Shown piece by piece: positions 6,620-52,877 of a stretch of 55,559 nucleotides of DNA. The stretch's first letter is position 1, and every line of letters begins with the position of its first letter. Under the pieces are notes generated by a model. That model worked only from the letters and a program-made list of their open reading frames with translations, searched no databases and was not told where the DNA came from. The stretch lies in assembly GCA_017472145.1 (NCBI GenBank), contig JAFUQX010000037.1, positions 1 to 55,559 on the forward strand, read 5' to 3'. The DNA comes from Ruminococcus sp. (GTDB lineage: Bacteria; Bacillota; Clostridia; Oscillospirales; Ruminococcaceae). The position numbers were made by a program, and so were the translations under genes.

Positions 6620-8545
6620 TTACCCCTCCATCTCCTCCTCCAGGAGGATCAGCTCCTCCAGAGCATCCTCCATCTGCTGCCGGATCTCATCCATCCGATG
6701 GCATTTTTCCTGCATCAGAGCAAAGTCAGAATACACCTCCTCAGAGGCGATCTCCTCATTGAGCGCATCCAGCTCCTGCTGAAGGGTATCGGTCAGATTC
6801 TCAAGCTCCTTCTTCCGGCTGCGCTGCCTTGCTTCCAGCGCACGCTGCTGCTTGGAGCGATAGGCCGGCTTTTCTCCTCCGGCTTGCTTGGTCTGCGCCA
6901 CGGCCGTCGCCGCAGCCTTTGCTTCCTGGTTACGCTTCTGCTCCGCATCCAGCCAGCTCTGGAAGCCGCCCTGATAGGTTCGGATTCCATCTGCTGTAAT
7001 TTCCAGGATATGGTCAGCTACACGATCCAGCAGATAGCGGTCATGGGAGACAAACAGGAGCGTTCCGCCGAATTCTGCCATGGCCTCCTCAATAACCTCC
7101 TTCATGGAGATGTCCAGATGGTTGGTCGGCTCGTCCAGAATCAGCACATTGCCATGCTCCAGCATCATCACCGCAAAGCATACCTTGGCACGCTCCCCGC
7201 CGCTGAGCACACCCACCGGCTTGAACACATCCTCTCCCACAATGCGCACCTGTCCCAGGAGACTGCGCACCTGCAAATCCGTCCACGTGGGCACACGATC
7301 ATGAATTTCCTGCATAACCGTCTTTTCCGGATGGAGATTGGTGCTTTCCTGCTCGAAGTAGGAACGCTTCACATTGCTTGTCCAGCGGATCTTTCCCTTG
7401 TGGGGAAGCAGACCCTGAAGCACCTTCAGGAGCGTGGACTTGCCAATGCCATTGTCCCCGATGATGCCCCACTTGTCCCCCCGGCGCACCTCGAAGGACA
7501 AGGAGTCCACCAGCGTTTTTTTCTGTGCGCCCTCCCCTACAGAAATGTCAATATCCTGAACAGACAAAAGCTGCTGGGGTGGATCGATCTCATAGGTAAA
7601 CCGGACTCTTGCCTGCTTGGAATAGGTAATGGGCTTGTCGATACGCTCCATCTTCTCCAGCTGCTTCATACGGCTCTGAGCGCTCTTTGCGGTAGATGCA
7701 CGAGTCTGATTCCGGGCTACATAATCCTCCAGCTTGGCAATTTCCTTCTGCTGAAGCTCATACTCCTTCATCTGACGGGCCACCGCCGCTTCCTTAAGCG
7801 CAGTAAAGGTGGTATAATTTCCCTTGTACCGTGTCAGCTTCCCATGTTCGATCTCGCAGATGGAGGTACACAGCCTGTCCAGAAAATACCGGTCGTGGGA
7901 TACGATCAGCAGTGCACCCTTATAATCCTTCAGATACTCCTCCAGCCACATAACCGTTTTAAAGTCCAGATGGTTGGTCGGCTCATCCAGAATCAGCAGG
8001 TTCGGCTCCTCCAGAAGGAGCTTGGCAATGGCCAGTCGAGTCTTTTCACCGCCGCTGAATCCGGAGATGATCCGGCTGTATGTATCCTCCTCAAAGCCCA
8101 TACCGCCCAGCACAGTCTTGATTTTCACATCGATCTGATAGCCCTCGTTGCTCTCGAACCAGGTCTGAAGCCGGTGGTATTCCTCTGCTTCGGCGGTGCT
8201 TCCGGCCTGCATTTTCTCCTCCAGCCGGCGCATTTTCGCCTGAGCCTCCAGCAGCTCATGGAATACACCCCGCATTTCCTCCCAGACCGTGCTTTCTCTG
8301 TCCAGTCCGCTCATCTGCTCCAGATATCCCACAGAGGTCTTGCCGGAATAGGCGATGTCACCGTCTCCCTCCACGAGATGATCCGGGAGGATCTGACCGG
8401 TGATCAGACGGAGAAGGGTGGACTTTCCGCAGCCATTGACGCCGATCAGGCCGATGCGGTCTCTGTCCTCAATGGTCAGATCGATATGCTGCAAAACAGG
8501 ATTTCCATTGTAGATCTTATTCACGTCATTCAGACGGATCAGCAT
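6620..8545 (-). CDS. ABC-F family ATPase (translation-associated)
   Basis: A soluble protein of two ABC ATPase halves without membrane segments. ABC-F proteins bind the ribosomal E site and relieve stalled translation or confer ribosome-targeted antibiotic resistance. Half one has GVNGCGKST (near residue 36), FSGGEKTRLAIAKLL and ILDEPTNHLD. Half two has GDNGIGKST, LSGGERAKVCFAVM and ILDEPTNHLD. A Q- and K-rich linker of about 80 residues lies between the halves, and the last 80 residues form a charged coiled coil as in Uup or YfmR-type members. The 641-residue length fits. GAGAGGGAAAAACT precedes the ATG. I see no antibiotic-resistance-specific feature, so a housekeeping role is more likely. 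Confidence 0.93.
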   Translation of the reverse strand: MLIRLNDVNKIYNGNPVLQHIDLTIEDRDRIGLIGVNGCGKSTLLRLITGQILPDHLVEGDGDIAYSGKTSVGYLEQMSGLDRESTVWEEMRGVFHELLEAQAKMRRLEEKMQAGSTAEAEEYHRLQTWFESNEGYQIDVKIKTVLGGMGFEEDTYSRIISGFSGGEKTRLAIAKLLLEEPNLLILDEPTNHLDFKTVMWLEEYLKDYKGALLIVSHDRYFLDRLCTSICEIEHGKLTRYKGNYTTFTALKEAAVARQMKEYELQQKEIAKLEDYVARNQTRASTAKSAQSRMKQLEKMERIDKPITYSKQARVRFTYEIDPPQQLLSVQDIDISVGEGAQKKTLVDSLSFEVRRGDKWGIIGDNGIGKSTLLKVLQGLLPHKGKIRWTSNVKRSYFEQESTNLHPEKTVMQEIHDRVPTWTDLQVRSLLGQVRIVGEDVFKPVGVLSGGERAKVCFAVMMLEHGNVLILDEPTNHLDISMKEVIEEAMAEFGGTLLFVSHDRYLLDRVADHILEITADGIRTYQGGFQSWLDAEQKRNQEAKAAATAVAQTKQAGGEKPAYRSKQQRALEARQRSRKKELENLTDTLQQELDALNEEIASEEVYSDFALMQEKCHRMDEIRQQMEDALEELILLEEEMEG

Positions 8546-22678: not shown

Positions 22679-24310
22679 TCAGTCTGTATACGGAAGGGAT
22701 TCTACAAGCATAACCAGATATTCCAGCAGTGTAACCGAATCCAAGGTATTGATCTGACCATCATCATAGCAGTCTGCATTGCTCAGGGAGGCCTCGTTCA
22801 GAGACAGCGCGCCCGCCAGATACTTATTGAGCAGTACCGCATCAATCAAAGAAACATCCTCATCCAGATTTATATCGCCGCACAGGCCCTCTACAACGGT
22901 AACATTACAGAAAAGAATCTTGCCCCGGACAATGGTATATACCCGGCATGAACCGGTGGCTTTGGCCGTAATTGTGCCGTTTTCTGAAATGGTCGCTATC
23001 GATTCATCCGTAGTTTTCCATGTCTCTGTACCGTCTGCATTATAGACCTTCAGCTTAAAATTCATTCCCTCATACAGCTCTACGCTGGTATGAGAAAGAT
23101 ATGGGGTTTCATACACGGTGACAACCTCGCTTGAAACAACTGTTGTAGTGGTAGTGGACGTAGTTGTTGTCGTTGTGGTCTCTGTTGTAGTAGTGGTTGT
23201 TGTTGTCTCCTCTGTAGTTGTCGTGGTTGTCGTGGTTGTCGTTGTGGGTTCAGGCGTGGTCGTAGTGGTCGTTGCCGCAGTCGTCTCGGAGGTCGTGGTA
23301 GTCGTCGTTGTGGTAGTCTCAGGGGTCGTTGTTGTAGTAGTAGAAGTCGTCGTTTCCGGCTCATCCTCTGTTACAACGATCGTCAGTCCGCGTGCAACAT
23401 CCGGCAGACAGTCCTCATTCATAAAGGTCTTTCCATCCTCCTGGAAGGAAATGGTATATGTGCCGCTGGGCGTACCCTGCTGTACAACTGCTTCAAAGGA
23501 GGTAGCTGCAAACTCATCCGATTCACCCAGGAAAGAGGTCGTGCCGGATCCGTTATACTGCCAGATGGTAACATTACACAAGCCCGGGATCAAGGAGCCG
23601 ACCGGAAGCGTCGGATCATAGAATGGAATCGTTCCTGTTTCTGTATCCAGCTCAAAATTATCCTGTCTTACATATTCATATGTAAAGGTCGCTGAACCAT
23701 CCTCCTGCGGTTCAACATCAACATAGAAGCGCTTTTCCTCCTTCAGCTGAATGTCCTTGTTCTCCTGACTTGTAAAATAGGATGCATCAAAATAAATCTG
23801 ATTGTTCTCACCCATATATATAAGCTCACCAAAGGTCGGCTCGTTTACATACTTTGTAGAATAATACATACACTCCACATTGGAATATACTGTGCCCGTT
23901 CTTTTTGTAATTACCCTGGCCAGCATATAGGGAGTAAGCTCACTGGTAAATGTACCGCCGCTGTAGGTATATTCCTTATTCTCACCCAGAGCACCGTAGT
24001 CCATGGGATTCTGGAACCGGATCGCATCCCAGCTGCTCGGCTCCCAGGCATAGCACATATATTTGATATGCGGATCTACCCACTCCTCTGAATCCATATA
24101 GATCGAAACCGGAATGACAACATCCCCCTCAGCCAGCTCAGACTCGGAGATATATACGGTATCGGCCCGGTCCTCTCCGGTAGCCATATATAGCTCAAAA
24201 TAAGGATGTGTATGCTCTGTTGCCGCAAAAACATTCCCCACGGACATTCCCGTAACACCAAGCACGGCCGCTGTGCAAACCGCTGCCCACTTTGTAAACT
24301 TCATTTTCAT
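22679..24310 (-). CDS. Secreted dockerin protein with Thr-rich linker and Ig-like (BIG2) domain
   Basis: A 543-residue exported protein with four parts. The signal peptide ends at VFAATEHTH. Residues 32-320 form an unassigned, probably beta-rich region (GGTFTSELTPYMLARVITK, TSFEAVVQQGTPSGTYTISF) that resembles cohesin-like or adhesion folds, without a firm match. Residues about 322-400 are almost pure Thr with scattered E, P, S and V, a long spacer. Then comes an Ig-like segment (TPYLSHTSVELYEGMNFKLK, TTDESIATISENGTITAKAT) and a C-terminal dockerin (CGDINLDEDVSLIDAVLLNK, ADCYDDGQINTLDSVTLLEY). The start follows AAGGAG at a long spacing. It likely attaches to the cellulosome; no catalytic motif is visible. 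Confidence 0.85.
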   Translation of the reverse strand: MKMKFTKWAAVCTAAVLGVTGMSVGNVFAATEHTHPYFELYMATGEDRADTVYISESELAEGDVVIPVSIYMDSEEWVDPHIKYMCYAWEPSSWDAIRFQNPMDYGALGENKEYTYSGGTFTSELTPYMLARVITKRTGTVYSNVECMYYSTKYVNEPTFGELIYMGENNQIYFDASYFTSQENKDIQLKEEKRFYVDVEPQEDGSATFTYEYVRQDNFELDTETGTIPFYDPTLPVGSLIPGLCNVTIWQYNGSGTTSFLGESDEFAATSFEAVVQQGTPSGTYTISFQEDGKTFMNEDCLPDVARGLTIVVTEDEPETTTSTTTTTTPETTTTTTTTTSETTAATTTTTTPEPTTTTTTTTTTTEETTTTTTTTETTTTTTTSTTTTTVVSSEVVTVYETPYLSHTSVELYEGMNFKLKVYNADGTETWKTTDESIATISENGTITAKATGSCRVYTIVRGKILFCNVTVVEGLCGDINLDEDVSLIDAVLLNKYLAGALSLNEASLSNADCYDDGQINTLDSVTLLEYLVMLVESLPYTD

Positions 24311-33654: not shown

Positions 33655-35016
33655 TTACATCATGAAGTACCGTGCTGCGATTTCCGCTGCATCACCCACC
33701 AGCTCCTTGCAGGGGCGCTTTTTGTAATAGCTTTCCGTTCTCTTTTCCGGCTCGTGATGGCTGGCTCCGGTCTGATCGAGCCCCAGAAGCTCCCGGCAGA
33801 TCATGCTGCCATTTTTCTCACGGAATTCCGACGCCAGCTCCTGAATCCGCTTGTAATGCGCCGTTTTTTCCGCATGATCCTTCGGATCATCATAGCCGCA
33901 GAGCAGGCCGGCCATCATAAACATACCGCTGACCGCACCGCATACCTCTCTCAGACGACCCATACCGCCGCCAAAGGAGGAGGCCATTCTGGCTGCCATG
34001 GAAAGAGACATCCCCAGCTCCTCCGCAAAGGCCATCAGCACGGCCTGGCTGCAATTATACCCTTCAGTAAAAAATGCTTTGGCCCGATCGGCATATTCCG
34101 CCGGTGTTTGTCTGAGTACCGGACTTGTCCATTTTCGGAAAAATCCGCACTCTGCATCATTGCAGGCCCTGGCCGCATCTGAGCGGATGTTGCAGTGGAA
34201 TACATGCCAGAGCGTTTCCGTCTCGTCTCCATATTCGTGGAATTCATAGGGTACGCCGTTTCTTTCCAGCGCATCGATCATAATATGCTGCTGATTCCGC
34301 AGGAAATCTCCATTGGAGGTCATTACGAAGGCCGGTGGAAACGCCGCAGTTACAAAATCCGCAGGCTGTCCAAGACAAAGCGCCTGCTCTCCATAGCCTT
34401 CTCCCAGAACGGTACGCACCAGCTCCTCTCCCTCCTCGGGGGAAGCACTGCCGTCCACACGACACAAGCCATCTCTCATCTCATAAACCCCGCAGTTCAG
34501 GGCAATGGCACGAATCCGTACCTCCGGCACATCCAGAGAAAGCTGCTCCCGAACGTCCGGATTTGTCAGCGCACAGGCATACATTGCAGCCATCTGCGCT
34601 CCGGCCGAATCGCCGACCATACAGAGACGGGAAAGGTCGCCGCCATACTCCGGAATGTGCGCCTTTACCCAGTGCATGGCTGCGTTTATATCCTGAAGAT
34701 GCTCCGGATAGAGCACCTCCGGCGACAGACGATAGCTGAAATTCACCACTGCAAAGCCATGCTGCGCAAGGCTCATGCAATAATGCTGATATACGTCCTT
34801 ATCTCCATAAACCCAGCCGCCGCCATGAACGCTGACGATCACCGGAAGGGGCCGTGCTGCGCCTTCAGGACGATATACGTCCAGCAGATTCCACTCTCCA
34901 TGCACCCCATAGGAGATATTATCAAATCGCTCTACATCCTCCGGCGTTACAAGTCCGGCGTCTCTGGCCGAATCGCCGTCCTCAAACATTTTTCTCAGCT
35001 TCTGATAAACCTGCAT
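33655..35016 (-). CDS. Alpha/beta-hydrolase esterase fused to a C_GCAxxG_C_C domain
   Basis: A 453-residue fusion. Residues 30-295 are a hormone-sensitive-lipase-type esterase with oxyanion motif HGGGW (64-68), nucleophile Ser137 in GDSAG, a likely Asp in SNGDF and His271 or His274 in LWHVFH. Residues 305-450 match the C_GCAxxG_C_C redox-type family: GYNCSQAVLMAF (Cys322), FGGGMGRLREVCGAVSG (Cys359), ICRELLG (Cys407) and RPCKELVGDAAEI (Cys436). Both halves are full length with no break, so the fusion looks real. The start overlaps the end of the upstream GTPase-nuclease gene by 35 bp and has its own GGAGGAATGAAGC. The substrate is unknown. Confidence 0.85.
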   Translation of the reverse strand: MQVYQKLRKMFEDGDSARDAGLVTPEDVERFDNISYGVHGEWNLLDVYRPEGAARPLPVIVSVHGGGWVYGDKDVYQHYCMSLAQHGFAVVNFSYRLSPEVLYPEHLQDINAAMHWVKAHIPEYGGDLSRLCMVGDSAGAQMAAMYACALTNPDVREQLSLDVPEVRIRAIALNCGVYEMRDGLCRVDGSASPEEGEELVRTVLGEGYGEQALCLGQPADFVTAAFPPAFVMTSNGDFLRNQQHIMIDALERNGVPYEFHEYGDETETLWHVFHCNIRSDAARACNDAECGFFRKWTSPVLRQTPAEYADRAKAFFTEGYNCSQAVLMAFAEELGMSLSMAARMASSFGGGMGRLREVCGAVSGMFMMAGLLCGYDDPKDHAEKTAHYKRIQELASEFREKNGSMICRELLGLDQTGASHHEPEKRTESYYKKRPCKELVGDAAEIAARYFMM

Positions 35017-37624
35017 GCTTCATTCCTCCTGCTCCGATATGGGCCCCTCGCAGGGCCTCTGTCTCTATATATTCCTGTATTTCACGGTTGGTCTGCCGGA
35101 TTTCCTCATAAAATTCTGAAGCTGACATGCGATATGCGCCGTTTCCCAGAATAATGATCTGCTCCAGCCGGTCGGAGGTAGCTACACGCACACGATAGTC
35201 CTTCCCCAGCTCATGAGTCGCCCGCTCAATATAGGTATCTGCTGTTTCCGCTTCCTTGGTGTAGACCACATGGATCTTTCCGATCTGCTCCGAAGAGCCG
35301 GGATTTCCCTTTACACGATAGGCATCAAATACGATGATCAGCTCACACCGACGCACACCCTGATAGTTCTGCATCATCTCAATAAGCCGATGACGGGCCG
35401 ACTCCAGATTTTCCTCCGACAGCTTTTTCAGCTCATCCCATGCAAAAATGATATTGTAGCCGTCTACGAGAAGATATTCCTTCCCCAGCTTCTGGGGAGA
35501 GACCGGAACCGAAGCCGGCGTACGCTCCTTCTGCGTATGAAGCGCACTCCGCTCGTCCCGGCGGATCTTCCCGTAGGTGCGCTCAAAAATCGCCATCAGC
35601 TCCTTGTCCTCTGCAAGGCTTCCTCCATATCCGGAATAGCCCCGTGAAACCGGAGCAGACACCGCCTCCGGCTCAGTCTTTATGTCCTTCTGATAAGGCA
35701 GGTGCATGTGAAGGGGCACTTCATCCCACCTTACAAGATACCCTGCACCATGGGCACAGAATACAGAATCAGCCGGATTTTCCGTATCACGATCACAGTT
35801 ATAGCCGATTTCCGCCAGAACCGTCTCTGTATGATGACAGCGGTCATAGCCATCCGGCATGCAGCTGAGACGTCCCCGTCCCTGGGTATAGGCTGTCACC
35901 TCGGCGGCATATTCCTGCATCTCCGATACCGCAGCCTGTCCGGTGAGAACAGACATCGTACCCTGAAGCTCCGGCGGCGAAAACTGCGCATCCATCCGCT
36001 GGAGATCGGACATCGCCCGTCCCACCTGCTCGGAGGGGACCTCCAGCCGGAAGGCATACCACGGCTCAAGAAGGATACTCTCGGCCATGCGCAGTCCTTG
36101 ACGCACCGCACGGTACGTAGCCTGGCGGAAATCACCGCCCTCTGTATGCTTCAGATGGGCCTTTCCCGACACCACTGTCAGCCGCATATCTGTAATGGGT
36201 GCACCGCAAAGTACGCCCGGATGCACCTTTTCCTGCAAATGAGTCAGCACCAGCCGCTGCCAGTTCTTGTCAAGAATCTCCTCCCGGCAGTCTGTGCAGA
36301 ATTGCAGTCCGCTTCCTCTGGGGAGCGGCTCCATGAGGATATGCACCTCCGCATAATGCCGCAGGGGTTCATAATGCCCCACGCCCTCCACCGGAGCAGC
36401 AATGGTCTCCTTATAAGCGATACTGCCCTTATCGAACTGCACCTCCATCTGAAACCGCTCTGCAATAAGCCGGGACAGAATTTCCAGCTGCACCGCACCC
36501 ATAAGCTGGATGTGGATTTCGCTCAAGCGGCTGTTCCAGATCACATGGAGCTGAGGATCCTCCTCCTCCAGAAAGCGGAGCTTTTCCAGAGCGGTAGCTG
36601 CATCCACATCCGGCGGCGGTATGAGCCGATAGGTCATCACCGGTTCAAGCACAGGCTGCACCGCACCGCCGGCCATACCGATTCCCAGGCCGCATTGAGT
36701 CTGACTGAGACCTGTCACAGCGCAGACACATCCAGCCTCGGCTGTATCAATTGCCTGAAACTTATGACCTGAATAAATCCGGATCTGGCTGACCTTTTCC
36801 GTGACCGTCTCTCCATCCGGATTCTGATAGTTCAGCTGAGAGCGCACCCTGAGCTTTCCCCCGGTGATCTTCAGATAGGTCAGACGGCTGCCCTGCTCAT
36901 CAGTAGCAATCTTAAAAATACGTGCACCAAATTCCTCAGGATACTGCGGATTTTCCGTATAGTGCCCGATTCCGGAGAGGAATTCGTCCACGCCTTCCAG
37001 CTTCCGTGCTGAGCCAAAGTAACAGGGAAAGATTTTCCGATCTGCTACAGCACGGCGAATTCCATCCTCGGCGATCTCTCCGGTTTCCAGGAACTCCTCC
37101 AGGAGGGCTTCCTCACACAAGGCCGCCTGCTCATAGAACAGATCATTTGTATCATCACTGAAATCTACACAATCCCTGCTGAGGCGCTCCTTCAGCTCAA
37201 GAAGCAGTGCGTCCCGGTCTGTACCAGACAAATCCATCTTATTGATAAAAAGAAATGTGGGAATGTGGTACCGCTCCAGGAGTTTCCACAAAGTTTCGGT
37301 GTGACTCTGAACGCCGTCCGTACCGCTGATCACGAGAATGGCGTAATCCAGCACCTGAAGGGTTCGCTCCATTTCGGCAGAAAAGTCCACGTGTCCCGGC
37401 GTATCCAGCAGGGTAATCTCCAGCTCCGGGAGACGGAGCATGGCTTGCTTCGAGAAAATAGTAATGCCCCTCTGACGCTCCAGCGCATGCGTGTCTAAAA
37501 AAGTATCTCCATGATCCACACGGCCTAGGCGGCGGATTTCACCGCTGCGATAGAGCATTCCCTCGGAGAGTGTTGTCTTGCCGGAGTCTACATGGGCCAG
37601 TATGCCTGCAACCAATCGTTTCAT
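34982..37624 (-). CDS. TetM/EF-G-like ribosomal GTPase fused to a YacP/Rae1-type NYN nuclease
   Basis: An 880-residue fusion. Residues 1-640 follow the TetM/TetO layout of EF-G-like proteins. Seen are G1 AHVDSGKTT (10-18), the RGITI switch, G3 DTPGHVDF, G4 NKMD, domain II, and the ribosome-facing domain IV with C-terminal LQRMDAQFSPPEL. The tip loop reads HLKHTEGGDF and lacks the longer TetM loop that displaces tetracycline, so drug resistance is doubtful. After a linker, about residues 715-850 are a NYN/PIN domain: LVDGYNIIFAWDELK, IVFDAY, KEAETADTYIE and VATSDRLEQ. These carry the acidic residues of YacP/Rae1, a ribosome-dependent A-site mRNA endonuclease. I start at 37624, which aligns with TetM; an ATG three codons earlier is possible. 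Confidence 0.88.
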   Translation of the reverse strand: MKRLVAGILAHVDSGKTTLSEGMLYRSGEIRRLGRVDHGDTFLDTHALERQRGITIFSKQAMLRLPELEITLLDTPGHVDFSAEMERTLQVLDYAILVISGTDGVQSHTETLWKLLERYHIPTFLFINKMDLSGTDRDALLLELKERLSRDCVDFSDDTNDLFYEQAALCEEALLEEFLETGEIAEDGIRRAVADRKIFPCYFGSARKLEGVDEFLSGIGHYTENPQYPEEFGARIFKIATDEQGSRLTYLKITGGKLRVRSQLNYQNPDGETVTEKVSQIRIYSGHKFQAIDTAEAGCVCAVTGLSQTQCGLGIGMAGGAVQPVLEPVMTYRLIPPPDVDAATALEKLRFLEEEDPQLHVIWNSRLSEIHIQLMGAVQLEILSRLIAERFQMEVQFDKGSIAYKETIAAPVEGVGHYEPLRHYAEVHILMEPLPRGSGLQFCTDCREEILDKNWQRLVLTHLQEKVHPGVLCGAPITDMRLTVVSGKAHLKHTEGGDFRQATYRAVRQGLRMAESILLEPWYAFRLEVPSEQVGRAMSDLQRMDAQFSPPELQGTMSVLTGQAAVSEMQEYAAEVTAYTQGRGRLSCMPDGYDRCHHTETVLAEIGYNCDRDTENPADSVFCAHGAGYLVRWDEVPLHMHLPYQKDIKTEPEAVSAPVSRGYSGYGGSLAEDKELMAIFERTYGKIRRDERSALHTQKERTPASVPVSPQKLGKEYLLVDGYNIIFAWDELKKLSEENLESARHRLIEMMQNYQGVRRCELIIVFDAYRVKGNPGSSEQIGKIHVVYTKEAETADTYIERATHELGKDYRVRVATSDRLEQIIILGNGAYRMSASEFYEEIRQTNREIQEYIETEALRGAHIGAGGMKHAGLSEAEKNV

Positions 37625-37662
37625 ATGCTTCATCCTACTCTGATAGATGTATATTTCTTTTT

Positions 37663-37691
37663 ATTATAGCATACTCCAGCTGGAAATACAA
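37663..37691 (-). promoter_or_regulatory. Promoter for the GTPase-nuclease / esterase operon
   Basis: Minus strand TTGTAT (37691-37686), 17-bp spacer, TATAAT (37668-37663). Confidence 0.7.
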
Positions 37692-37713: not shown

Positions 37714-37745
37714 CAAAAAAGCACCCTGCGGCTGCAAGGTGCTTT
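37714..37745 (-). terminator. Terminator after the 37754-38815 dockerin gene
   Basis: AGCACC (37743-37738) pairs with GGTGCT (37725-37720), extended by a TTGC/GCAG segment; TTTTTTGC follows on the minus strand. Confidence 0.75.
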
Positions 37746-37753
37746 CCTGTTTG

Positions 37754-38815
37754 CTATTCAATTGTAACCGGGAGCGCATCCACCTTATCCGTGAGGTAGC
37801 AGAGCAGCGCAGTCACATCGGCCGAGTCGATGAGTCCATCGCCGTTGCAATCCGCTGCGGCCGTCTGGCTTTCATTCAGCATGATCGCCTGGATGTTGGC
37901 TTTACTCAGGGTGATTGCGTCCAGTACCGTAACCTTTCCGTCCTGGTTCAGGTCGCCATGAGTCGTGGCTGACTTTTCCAGCTCGGCGAGAATGTCAACT
38001 GTATCAAATTCCACCTCATTGCTATCTGAAGCAAGAAACATCCCCATACGACCCCATGCACTCGGATAAATCTCCTTGATCGCATACATCAGATCAACAG
38101 CATGATCAGCCTCAATGATGATGTTATAAATTGCATATCCATCCTCTCCGCTTGAAGAGAATGATACTGTACTATCCTCTGAAAATTCAGATGCAATTGT
38201 TTGCAGAGTCTCCCTTCCGCTTTCTTCTGTTTCAGGCTCAACAAAAACATACATTCCATTTGAATAACTGCCCTGTGCGTAGTTTGCACGGCACGGCGTA
38301 TAATAAGCCTCTGTAATACATCCGGCATCGTACAGTTCTTTACACATTTCCTGAATTGCTTCGGACTTATCCTCCACTGTTGTTGGATCTTTCGTCTCCA
38401 CACCCTCTGTATTGTATCTGTCATACATCGTTACACGATGAAATTCGCCTTCCTGATACAGGCCTGTATACCAATCGAAAGAGAGACGATCCCGATACTG
38501 TTCATAGATCGCCTTATATGCAGTCACATCGCTGACCAGAATCGATACATAGTTATATGTGAAATTATGATAAACCCGATAGAGAATGTCATAAGGAGTT
38601 GCACACATATAAGGTGCATAGCAGTAATCCTCCTCATTGGAGACATTTCCTACCCACGACAGGAGACCCGCATCATCAAATTCCTCATATCCCTCCGGCG
38701 TTGTGACGGGATCTTCTGTAAAATAAAGGATCGCATCTGCTGTGATACATGGCATAGCACTGATCGTCATTGCAGCCCCTATTAGCAGGGCTATGGCCTT
38801 CTTCCACTTTTTCAT
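37754..38815 (-). CDS. Secreted dockerin protein, function unknown
   Basis: A 353-residue exported protein. The start MKKWKKAIALLIG at 38815 follows GGGAGATGGGTTT, and the signal peptide likely ends near ITADA. The last 65 residues are a dockerin with clear calcium loops, GDLNQDGKVTVLDAITLSK and ADCNGDGLIDSADVTALLCY. The central 240 residues (VSILVSDVTAYKAIYEQYR, IQEMCKELYDAGCITEAYY, YAIYNIIIEADHAVDLMYAI) contain no enzyme motif I recognise and four to five Cys residues that could form disulfides. Its own promoter and terminator make it a single-gene unit. It is probably delivered to the cellulosome as a non-catalytic or novel component. Confidence 0.83.
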   Translation of the reverse strand: MKKWKKAIALLIGAAMTISAMPCITADAILYFTEDPVTTPEGYEEFDDAGLLSWVGNVSNEEDYCYAPYMCATPYDILYRVYHNFTYNYVSILVSDVTAYKAIYEQYRDRLSFDWYTGLYQEGEFHRVTMYDRYNTEGVETKDPTTVEDKSEAIQEMCKELYDAGCITEAYYTPCRANYAQGSYSNGMYVFVEPETEESGRETLQTIASEFSEDSTVSFSSSGEDGYAIYNIIIEADHAVDLMYAIKEIYPSAWGRMGMFLASDSNEVEFDTVDILAELEKSATTHGDLNQDGKVTVLDAITLSKANIQAIMLNESQTAAADCNGDGLIDSADVTALLCYLTDKVDALPVTIE

Positions 38816-50696: not shown

Positions 50697-52877
50697 ATGA
50701 AAAAAATATTAAGTGTTATTTGTGCTGCCGCGGTATTTACTTCCTCAGCTATTACAGCAATGAGGACGGAAACACCTGAAACTGTTTCAGCAGAGACATC
50801 TGTAAATTATGCGGAAGCACTACAGAAATCCTTGTATTTCTATGAATGCCAGCAGGCAGGCCCTCTTCCCGCATGGAACAGAGTTGAATGGCGAGGTGAT
50901 TCAACTGTAACCGACTTTATAACAGGGGGCTGGTACGATGCGGGTGACCATGTTAAGTTCAATCTTCCCATGGCCTATTCCGCCGCTATGATGGCATGGG
51001 GTCTTTATCAGTATCCCGATGGTATCGAAGAATGCGGCGAAATGACAAACTATGTGAATAACCTGACATTTGTTATGGATTATCTTGCCGCCTGCGATCT
51101 CGGTGACGAAATCGTCTATCAAGTAGGCAACGGTCAGGAGGACCATACATGGTGGGGAGCTGTTGAGCTTTATGAATATGGTCAGGCCGAAAACGGCAAT
51201 GACTATTCCGCCGGCAGACCCTATTACACAGCCAAAGCAGGAGAAGGCTATAGCGCTGTTCTCGGTGAAATGGCAGCGGCTCTTGCGGCCGGTGCAGCCG
51301 CTCTTGATGGCAGATCAGACAAAACAGACGAGTATATTTCTCATGCGGTGAATATGTTTGAAATGGCTGACACCGCAAAGAGCGATACCGATTATAACGG
51401 CAGTGACGCTTCTGGCTTTTACCGTTCCTCTCATTTTTATGACGAGCTTTTCTGGGCAGCAAACTGGCTTTACATTGCAACAGGGGAACAAACTTATCTT
51501 GATAAAGCGACAAGCTACATCCCGAATCTTGGAAAGGAACTTGGTTCGGATGAATTGAAGTATTCATGGGCACACTGCTGGGATGATGTACAGCAGGGCG
51601 GTATGATTCTTTACGCACAGAATACTGGTACGTATACCGATAGAGTAAAGCGTCATCTTGATTATCTTGTAAATGAAGTTACAAGGGTCGACGGAGCTAT
51701 CGTTTACATCCAGAACTGGGGCTGCTTGAGATATGCTACAACATGCGGATTTTTAGCAGCTGTGGCCTGTGATACGCTTTCGCTTGGTGATACGGCCGCT
51801 TATGAAGAATTCTACAAAACCCAGATCGACTATGCGCTCGGTGACAATCCTCTTGGTCAGAGCTATGTTGTAGGCTATGGCGAAAATTATCCTAAGAATC
51901 CTCACCACAGAACCGCTCATGCCTCATGGAACAATTCTGTTTATGAACCTGAAGAAAACAGACATATCCTCTATGGTGCATTGGTCGGCGGACCGAATCA
52001 GGACGGTACATATGAGGACGACCGCAATAACTATATCAACAACGAGGTTGCATGCGATTACAATGCAGGCTTTACAGGACTGCTTTGTAAAATGGTTGAT
52101 GAATACGGCGGAGAAACAGATCCATCTTTCCCGGAGCCTGAAACAAGAGACGCTGAGTTCTTCGTCGAAGCAATGCTCAAGCAGTCAAGCTCCAGCGGTG
52201 TTTCTCTCAGCCTTAAATTTACAAATCATACAGCATGGCCTGCAAGAGTTGTTGACAACATGTCCTACAGATATTATTTCGATGCTTCCGAGGTCATTTC
52301 CGCAGGATACAGTGCGTCGGATATTGTAGTACGTGTGGACAGAGATCAGGCAACAATGTACGGTCAGGAATATGCAGCTGAAATATCTCCTATAACACAG
52401 TATAAAGATAATATCTACTACATCGAGATAAAATATCCCAATGGTGCGGCTATACTTCCGATTTCCGAGGGCAGACATCAGTGTGAGACAATGCTCGCTC
52501 TTGTATTCCCGAATTACGGAAATGGTTGGGATGCTTCAAATGACTATTCAAACACAGATCTGATGGATACAATCGGTGCTGAGGAAGGAGTTGTTACCGA
52601 TAAGATAACGGTTTACAACAATGGCGTACTTGTTTATGGCATTGAGCCTGATGGTACTAAGCCTGATGTGTCAACACCTACAGAGCCGGACGAATATCTC
52701 AAGGGTGATGTAAATCTTAACGGTAACGTAGAGCTTTCAGATGTGGTTCTTCTTGTAAAATATACGCTGGCAATAAAGTCATTAAAATCAGAGCAGCTTG
52801 ATGCCGCTGATATGACAGAGGATAATAAGGTGAATATTTTTGATGTTTCTGCATTGAAAGGGGCGTTAACCGAATAA
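50697..52877 (+). CDS. GH9 endoglucanase with CBM3-like module and dockerin
   Basis: A 726-residue secreted cellulase that cleaves beta-1,4-glucan. The signal peptide (MKKILSVICAAAVFTSSAIT) leads the GH9 domain (36-475). Catalytic residues are Asp81 and Asp84 in GGWYDAGDHVKF and Glu450 in DDRNNYINNEVACDYN; the conserved NPHHRTAH is at 401-408. Residues about 484-640 form a CBM3c-like module (EAMLKQSSSSGVSLSLKFTN), the common partner of processive GH9 enzymes. A short Pro/Thr linker and a dockerin (GDVNLNGNVELSDVVLLVKY, ADMTEDNKVNIFDVSALKGA) follow. Third codon positions are visibly more AT-rich than in neighbouring housekeeping genes, which suggests transfer from a lower-GC relative. No other cellulosome enzyme is adjacent. 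Confidence 0.95.
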   Translation: MKKILSVICAAAVFTSSAITAMRTETPETVSAETSVNYAEALQKSLYFYECQQAGPLPAWNRVEWRGDSTVTDFITGGWYDAGDHVKFNLPMAYSAAMMAWGLYQYPDGIEECGEMTNYVNNLTFVMDYLAACDLGDEIVYQVGNGQEDHTWWGAVELYEYGQAENGNDYSAGRPYYTAKAGEGYSAVLGEMAAALAAGAAALDGRSDKTDEYISHAVNMFEMADTAKSDTDYNGSDASGFYRSSHFYDELFWAANWLYIATGEQTYLDKATSYIPNLGKELGSDELKYSWAHCWDDVQQGGMILYAQNTGTYTDRVKRHLDYLVNEVTRVDGAIVYIQNWGCLRYATTCGFLAAVACDTLSLGDTAAYEEFYKTQIDYALGDNPLGQSYVVGYGENYPKNPHHRTAHASWNNSVYEPEENRHILYGALVGGPNQDGTYEDDRNNYINNEVACDYNAGFTGLLCKMVDEYGGETDPSFPEPETRDAEFFVEAMLKQSSSSGVSLSLKFTNHTAWPARVVDNMSYRYYFDASEVISAGYSASDIVVRVDRDQATMYGQEYAAEISPITQYKDNIYYIEIKYPNGAAILPISEGRHQCETMLALVFPNYGNGWDASNDYSNTDLMDTIGAEEGVVTDKITVYNNGVLVYGIEPDGTKPDVSTPTEPDEYLKGDVNLNGNVELSDVVLLVKYTLAIKSLKSEQLDAADMTEDNKVNIFDVSALKGALTE

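What the first reader, a model, noticed from the sequence alone, without database searches (positions are those of the whole stretch)
34982..37624. EF-G/TetM-like ribosomal GTPase fused to a Rae1/YacP-type A-site nuclease
Seen: one uninterrupted 880-codon frame with all GTPase motifs, EF-G-like domains II-V and a complete NYN domain with four acidic residues. Known: TetM-type proteins bind the ribosome next to the A site, and Rae1 (YacP) cuts mRNA in the ribosomal A site. Inference: the fusion may be a GTP-driven delivery system that places a nuclease in the A site, for stalled-ribosome rescue or stress-regulated mRNA cutting. The tip loop lacks the TetM drug-displacing insert, so tetracycline resistance annotations of such proteins are probably wrong.
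Basis: partly seen in the sequence, partly recalled or inferred. Interest (0 to 1): 0.78.

Follow-up and report, generated by a model that had tools for sequence, protein, structure and literature searches.

The report
Ribosome GTPase fused to mRNA nuclease
Many gut Clostridia carry one long protein that joins a ribosome-binding GTPase to a nuclease of the Rae1 type, which cuts messenger RNA inside ribosomes; it is sometimes labelled a tetracycline-resistance protein, but its sequence fits a ribosome-targeted RNA cutter better.

Summary
On the minus strand, 34982-37624, one open frame encodes an EF-G/TetM-type translational GTPase (domains I-V), a clade-specific C-terminal extension, a linker, and a complete YacP/Rae1 NYN domain with its catalytic acids. 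Both halves are under purifying selection in related pairs. The fusion occurs in 53 of 148 evenly drawn Clostridia genomes, none of which also holds a stand-alone YacP; 45 others hold only the stand-alone form. In a larger sample one genome has both. The GTPase tree fits one fusion origin, in a clade outside TetM. Its domain IV tip loops are near-invariant and unlike TetM and EF-G; members scanned miss the NCBI tetracycline-protection cut-off. The basic C-terminal tail of stand-alone YacP is degenerate in most fusions. Best reading: a ribosome-targeted mRNA endonuclease that took the place of Rae1. The architecture is already in print (PMC4342817), there read as a Tet protein with an added RNase.

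The parts
34982..37624 (-). trGTPase-NYN fusion gene, 880 aa from ATG at 37624 (883 aa from ATG at 37633)
36959..37609 (-). G domain (GTP_EFTU), residues 9-225 of P0001
36431..36931 (-). EF-G-like domains II (235-312) and III (330-401)
36083..36427 (-). EF-G-like domain IV (403-517)
36341..36388 (-). domain IV tip loop I, EGVGHYEPLRHYAEVH (416-431), near-invariant and clade-specific
36125..36166 (-). domain IV tip loop III, GKAHLKHTEGGDFR (490-503), clade-specific, unlike TetM and EF-G
35834..36073 (-). EF-G-like domain V (521-600)
35696..35833 (-). C-terminal extension with SVFCxHGAG (601-646), shared by NYN-less members of the clade; its pattern is in 0 of 10 Tet-type rows
35480..35695 (-). 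variable linker with a conserved E...I...TY segment (647-718)
35057..35473 (-). NYN_YacP (Rae1-type) nuclease domain; D724, D770, D799, D821
34985..35056 (-). C-terminal tail, without the basic charge of the tail of stand-alone YacP (38 residues after I845, net charge -1, counted by hand)
37663..37691 (-). promoter-like TTGTAT-17-TATAAT with TG before the -10; short leader of about 30 nt
   Evidence: read by eye; the scan did not report it (first hexamer matches only 3 of 6)
37714..37749 (-). terminator-like hairpin after the upstream dockerin gene, so the fusion gene probably has its own promoter
   Evidence: 2 such sites found in the stretch, 1.9 expected by chance; this one has 16 pairs

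Best explanation
This is a translational GTPase of a subfamily distinct from TetM, fused once, early in Clostridia, to a Rae1-type mRNA endonuclease. The GTPase half most likely docks on the factor-binding side of the 70S ribosome, with its clade-specific domain IV tip in or near the decoding centre. It recognises a ribosome state (stalled, or with a vacant or blocked A site), and the tethered NYN domain cuts mRNA in or next to the A site, leaving a truncated message for decay and rescue. In these genomes the fusion takes the place of stand-alone Rae1. Shown: architecture, intact catalytic residues, purifying selection, trees that fit a single origin, near-complete exclusion between fused and stand-alone YacP, distinct tip loops, relaxed C-terminal tail. 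Inferred: ribosome binding and GTP hydrolysis (from the family), A-site mRNA cleavage (from Rae1), and the rescue or decay role.
For: Domains and Rae1 match. Catalytic residues 122 of 122. dN/dS 0.03-0.11 in both halves, 23 of 28 values, 14 of 68 pairs. One fused clade, SH-aLRT 99, with two NYN-less rows inside; a single NYN clade not rejected, p-AU 0.588. Fused 53, stand-alone 45, both 0 of 148 genomes, Fisher p 1.6e-11 without phylogenetic correction; families f46, f47 and f51 hold both forms in different genomes. Tip I 119 of 122 and tip III 115 of 122; 0 of 10 Tet-type and 0 of 9 EF-G-like rows. Tail net charge +3 or more in 22 of 26 stand-alone YacP, 12 of 122 fusions. Rae1 can attack mRNA in the A site, and such cutting frees the A site for tmRNA rescue (review PMC12320835, passage read).
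Against: No assay and no structural model. NYN-less clade GTPases exist in 14 of 61 genomes with stand-alone YacP and in 7 of 66 genomes without YacP, with no association between the two (3 of 8, p 0.72), so the GTPase does not need the nuclease. Domain IV and a Rae1-like domain might clash if both sat in the A site at once, so the action would have to be sequential or at the mRNA entry. One genome, G611, holds both forms, and for two more (G489, G528) the second match was not shown. Patchy distribution: 101 of 295 genomes of the order hold a YacP match at all. Seven of 122 fused rows miss the tip III pattern and three the tip I pattern.
Confidence: 0.55

Rival explanations
1. A tetracycline (or other ribosome-drug) protection protein that gained an RNase as an extra resistance mechanism, as proposed by Atkinson and colleagues in 2015.
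For: Same domain plan as TetM/TetO; TetO and TetM are among the best profile hits to solved structures; deposited annotations call some relatives TetM/TetW/TetO/TetS; proposal in PMC4342817.
Against: The TetM tip loop III is found in 0 of 122 fused and 0 of 24 NYN-less rows; nine clade members scanned score 393-472 bits against a cut-off of 775 for the general tet_protect model, while the TetM control scores 877; the clade is separate from TetM with full support; widespread across Clostridia; the short leader of about 30 nt leaves little room for an attenuator (inference).
Confidence: 0.13
2. A ribosome-tethered Rae1 in which the GTPase serves only as an anchor: the nuclease acts like ordinary Rae1 on specific codons, and GTP hydrolysis merely cycles the protein on and off, without sensing stalls. 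(Overlaps with the best explanation.)
For: Replacement of stand-alone YacP; loss of the basic tail in most fusions; long variable spacer of 104-191 aa from domain V to NYN.
Against: The tip loops are among the most conserved segments of the protein, more than an anchor needs; the GTPase is also kept without NYN.
Confidence: 0.2
3. A ribosome-bound RNase that processes or cuts rRNA or tRNA rather than mRNA (maturation or A-site tRNA cleavage).
For: Older proposal of rRNA/tRNA maturation for YacP-like NYN domains, as cited in PMC4342817 (passage read).
Against: The characterised YacP/Rae1 cuts mRNA on ribosomes (PMC12320835, passage); no YacP match in many genomes rated 99-100% complete, so no essential maturation.
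Confidence: 0.1
4. A defence or toxin-like protein that halts translation on phage infection by cutting mRNA on ribosomes.
For: A ribosome-directed nuclease with patchy distribution; relatives on a few plasmid and phage-labelled records.
Against: No PADLOC match; no neighbour gene shared by most of 118 fused loci; trees fit a single old origin.
Confidence: 0.05

Closest known systems
Rae1/YacP (B. subtilis, PDB 5mq8/5mq9)
   Same: NYN fold and catalytic residues; alignable over about 137 residues
   Different: Rae1 is a small stand-alone protein; stand-alone relatives in Clostridia carry a conserved basic C-terminal tail that is degenerate in most fusions
Tet-type proteins with a YacP-like NYN domain in ten Clostridiales species (Atkinson et al. 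2015, PMC4342817)
   Same: same architecture, most likely the same family (passage read; its Additional file 8 not seen)
   Different: there grouped as Tet resistance proteins; here the clade falls outside TetM and is widespread in Clostridia
TetM/TetO ribosomal protection proteins
   Same: G domain and domains II-V
   Different: tip loops I and III and the C-terminal extension differ; members scanned fall below the Tet cut-offs
EF-G
   Same: domain order; similar score in the structure search
   Different: tip loops differ; C-terminal extension and NYN are extra
NYN-less 'translation factor GTPase family protein' (e.g. Ligilactobacillus salivarius megaplasmids, about 50% identity)
   Same: the L. 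salivarius match spans residues 1-647, i.e. through the C-terminal extension; in 24 other NYN-less rows the same tip loops (22 and 24 of 24) and extension (23 of 24) are seen
   Different: no nuclease domain

Membership tests
YacP/Rae1 NYN nuclease | NYN_YacP domain above the Pfam cut-off | tested here: met
   177.5 bits against 24.6
YacP/Rae1 NYN nuclease | catalytic acids (D7 and D81 of Rae1, roles recalled) | tested here: met
   D724 and D799 align with them (counted by hand); 122 of 122
YacP/Rae1 NYN nuclease | basic C-terminal tail of stand-alone members (seen here, not a published criterion) | tested here: not met
   degenerate in most fusions; window's tail net -1 (hand count)
YacP/Rae1 NYN nuclease | ribosome-dependent mRNA cleavage | not testable with these tools
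   needs an assay
TetM-type ribosomal protection protein | score above the NCBIfam tet_protect cut-off | tested here: not met
   419.7 bits against 775; control L183 877.3
TetM-type ribosomal protection protein | TetM-type tip loop III (its residues' role in drug release is recalled; tip loops named in PMC4342817) | tested here: not met
   0 of 122; 7 of 10 Tet-type rows have it
TetM-type ribosomal protection protein | confers tetracycline resistance | not testable with these tools
   needs MIC assays
translational GTPase of the EF-G/Tet superfamily | G1-G4 motifs plus domains II-V | tested here: met
   (window protein passes)

The most novel reading that the evidence does not exclude
A single-protein no-go decay machine: a distinct translational GTPase subfamily senses a stalled or vacant-A-site ribosome with its near-invariant tip loops, uses GTP hydrolysis to vacate the A site, and hands the exposed codon to its own tethered nuclease. 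NYN-less members would be the sensor alone, recruiting other factors.
Probability: 0.3. Interest if true: 0.82.

Novelty: new variant of a known kind. Interest (0 to 1): 0.55.

Why it matters
If right, a protein family common in Clostridia, and in part filed as antibiotic resistance, is a ribosome-directed mRNA-cutting factor. That would correct resistance annotations and give a covalent GTPase-nuclease pair with which to study how Rae1-type cutting is targeted to ribosomes and timed by GTP hydrolysis.

Tried and rejected
Conserved operon partner: none shared by most of 118 fused loci. The largest cluster of neighbours is in 25 loci, at distances from -7.4 to +7.4 kb, and looks like generic signalling proteins; two small clusters of 4-5 loci sit directly beside the gene. 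Regulatory RNA: no Rfam family in the window. Defence library: no match. Association of NYN-less GTPase with stand-alone YacP: not found.

Stand-alone YacP in the order: 95 of 101 genomes have the domain in open frames of 833-1334 aa; 19 of those were fetched and checked for the GTPase half, besides the window. Of the other six, G107 lies at a contig end, G150, G193 and G205 lie within about 1 kb of a contig end or start, G215 is a fragment and G275 is split in two frames; none is a clear stand-alone gene. Assembly artefact: rejected, because fusions occur in single-contig genomes (G319, G427) and in complete plasmid records.

Papers. Rae1 papers PMC5412759, PMC6152456 (on Rae1 distribution), PMC10351889 and PMC12067863 and the TetO paper PMC3576927 are not held and were not read; PMC6152456 may mention the fusion, I cannot tell. 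Passages only were read of PMC4342817, PMC3814617, PMC11780869, PMC10632193, PMC12320835 and PMC1780047 (it counts Tet genes in 20 genomes, two copies in Clostridium acetobutylicum). Searches for the fusion in print. The only mention I saw is in PMC4342817; other listed papers were not opened.
Full report
WHAT IS THERE. The frame at 34982-37633 on the minus strand is real and uninterrupted. It encodes an EF-G/TetM-type GTPase with domains I-V and, after a spacer, a complete YacP-type NYN domain. The gene follows a terminator-like hairpin after the upstream dockerin gene; by eye there is a TTGTAT-17-TATAAT promoter and a leader of about 30 nt (the scan did not report this promoter). Its last codons overlap the start of the next gene, an esterase fused to a C_GCAxxG_C_C domain, by 35 nt.

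IT IS A GENUINE, SELECTED FUSION. Of the best 80 kept, 79 hold one open frame of more than 780 aa with both halves; they come from Oscillospiraceae, Lachnospiraceae, Ruminococcus flavefaciens FD-1, Intestinimonas, Anaerovorax, Fusibacter and others. For dN/dS I took the 14 most similar of 68 pairs (some are the same gene fetched twice; the window's gene is in none): 23 of 28 values were obtained, 0.03-0.11 for both halves, the other five being saturated. The six catalytic-site residues checked are present in 122 of 122 fused rows, of which 117 are distinct by their last 600 residues.

ONE ORIGIN. A tree of 85 GTPases puts 52 fused and 24 NYN-less members in one clade (support 100). Fused members form one group (support 99) with two NYN-less rows inside (L255 and L181), most simply losses. 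Three TetM-type proteins and three further Tet-like proteins lie outside (quick method, and long branches meet at the root, so the deep order is unsure). A tree of 71 NYN domains does not show the fused rows as one clade outright (one stand-alone row, L053, falls among them), but a single fused clade is not rejected (p-AU 0.588). For both trees only part of the fused set was used, drawn at random: 50 of 118 rows plus the window's and a contig-cut one in the first, 44 of 118 plus the window's in the second.

THE FUSION REPLACES STAND-ALONE YACP. The window's own genome (94.3% complete) has one YacP match, the fused one. In 148 evenly drawn Clostridia genomes, 53 have the fusion, 45 a stand-alone YacP, none both, 8 a GTPase without NYN (one, G422, is cut by a contig end), 45 nothing. 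'Fused' here means GTPase and NYN matches within 1.5 kb on one strand; in one of the 53 (G344) they lie in two frames, and in G374 the NYN match is partial. Fisher p is 1.6e-11 without correction for relatedness. Families f46, f47 and f51 contain both forms, in different genomes. In the larger sample of 391, 5 of 249 genomes with a match list two matches: G611 truly has both forms, G424 has two fused copies, the second match of G427 is below the cut-off, and those of G489 and G528 were not shown. The match list was capped.

THE GTPASE IS NOT A TETM. The two tip segments of domain IV, G.GH[FYW]EP[LMI][RK]HYAE and H.KHT.GGDF, are present in 119 and 115 of 122 fused rows and in 22 and 24 of 24 NYN-less rows, and in none of 10 Tet-type or 9 EF-G-like rows (group labels are mine); the TetM loop is in none of the fused or NYN-less rows and in 7 of the 10 Tet-type rows. 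A C-terminal extension with SxFCxxG is in 122 of 122 fused rows and 23 of 24 NYN-less rows; the loose pattern also hits 2 of 9 EF-G-like rows, by chance I think. Of the clade, nine proteins were scanned (the window's, L061 and seven NYN-less ones); none reaches the NCBI tet_protect cut-off, while a TetM control does. This makes drug displacement by the TetM route unlikely; it does not exclude some other drug effect.

THE NUCLEASE HALF LOST ITS OWN TAIL. Stand-alone YacP ends in a basic tail of 40-44 residues: 22 of 26 have net charge +3 or more and 20 of 26 an LExLR-type motif. In fusions only 12 and 2 of 122 do; 41 of 122 still have 38 or more residues there, and some Lachnospiraceae keep drifted remnants. 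I infer that the tail helps Rae1 to find ribosomes or RNA, and that the GTPase made it unnecessary. The role of the tail is a guess, and the rows are related, so the p-values are too strong.

HOW IT MOST LIKELY WORKS. By analogy with the family, the GTPase half binds the ribosome from the factor side with its tip near the decoding centre. Rae1 is reported to attack mRNA in the A site, and endonuclease cutting there frees the A site for tmRNA rescue (PMC12320835, passage read). The spacer between domain V and NYN is 104-191 aa, so reach is no obstacle in principle; whether tip and nuclease could occupy the A site together is open. I therefore favour sequential action: docking, state recognition or A-site clearance, then cleavage. 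Only the sequence facts above are shown.

WHAT SPEAKS AGAINST. GTPases of this clade live without the nuclease in 14 of 61 genomes with stand-alone YacP and in 7 of 66 without a YacP match. These two sets were picked by me from the listed part; for some of the 66 the lack of YacP was read from their absence in the match lists. The two are not associated in the even sample. So the GTPase has its own role, and the nuclease is an addition. The gene is dispensable on evolutionary scales: 101 of 295 genomes of the order hold a YacP match.

NOVELTY. The domain architecture was reported in 2015 for ten Clostridiales species as Tet proteins with an added RNase domain (PMC4342817). What I did not find in print, in the searches, is the link to Rae1, the replacement pattern, the separate clade with its own tip signature, or the loss of the tail. 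The library lacks four Rae1 papers that I asked for, so prior notice cannot be excluded.

Noticed in passing
33655-35016 (-): Esterase (BD-FAE/Abhydrolase_3) fused to a C_GCAxxG_C_C putative redox domain; its start overlaps the end of the fusion gene by 35 nt.
   Followed up: no
22679-24310 (-), 37754-38812 (-), 50697-52877 (+): Cellulosome-type dockerin proteins, one a GH9-CBM3-dockerin; the host looks like a cellulose-degrading member of Clostridia.
   Followed up: no
6620-8545 (-): ABC-F type protein (two ABC domains, linker extension, C-terminal domain), a second factor of a ribosome-associated kind.
   Followed up: no
MT835563.1 5421-8060 (L272) and MT835514.1 15276-17801: Near full-length matches to the fusion (98% and 97% of the query) on unannotated 'Bacteriophage sp.' faecal records; may be bacterial flanks or true phage cargo. 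Only the first was fetched.
   Followed up: partly
L181 and L182: NYN-less member of the fused clade at the start of two viral contigs (L181 in the tree).
   Followed up: partly
NZ_CP117984.1 (L269): NYN-less clade GTPase beside a divergently read rpsN copy (S14) on a Ligilactobacillus salivarius megaplasmid.
   Followed up: no
L249, L263, L267: Further Tet-like GTPases of Clostridia that fall near TetM in the tree but miss the TetM tip pattern; L249 also misses the NCBIfam cut-off (606 of 775 bits), the other two were not scanned.
   Followed up: no
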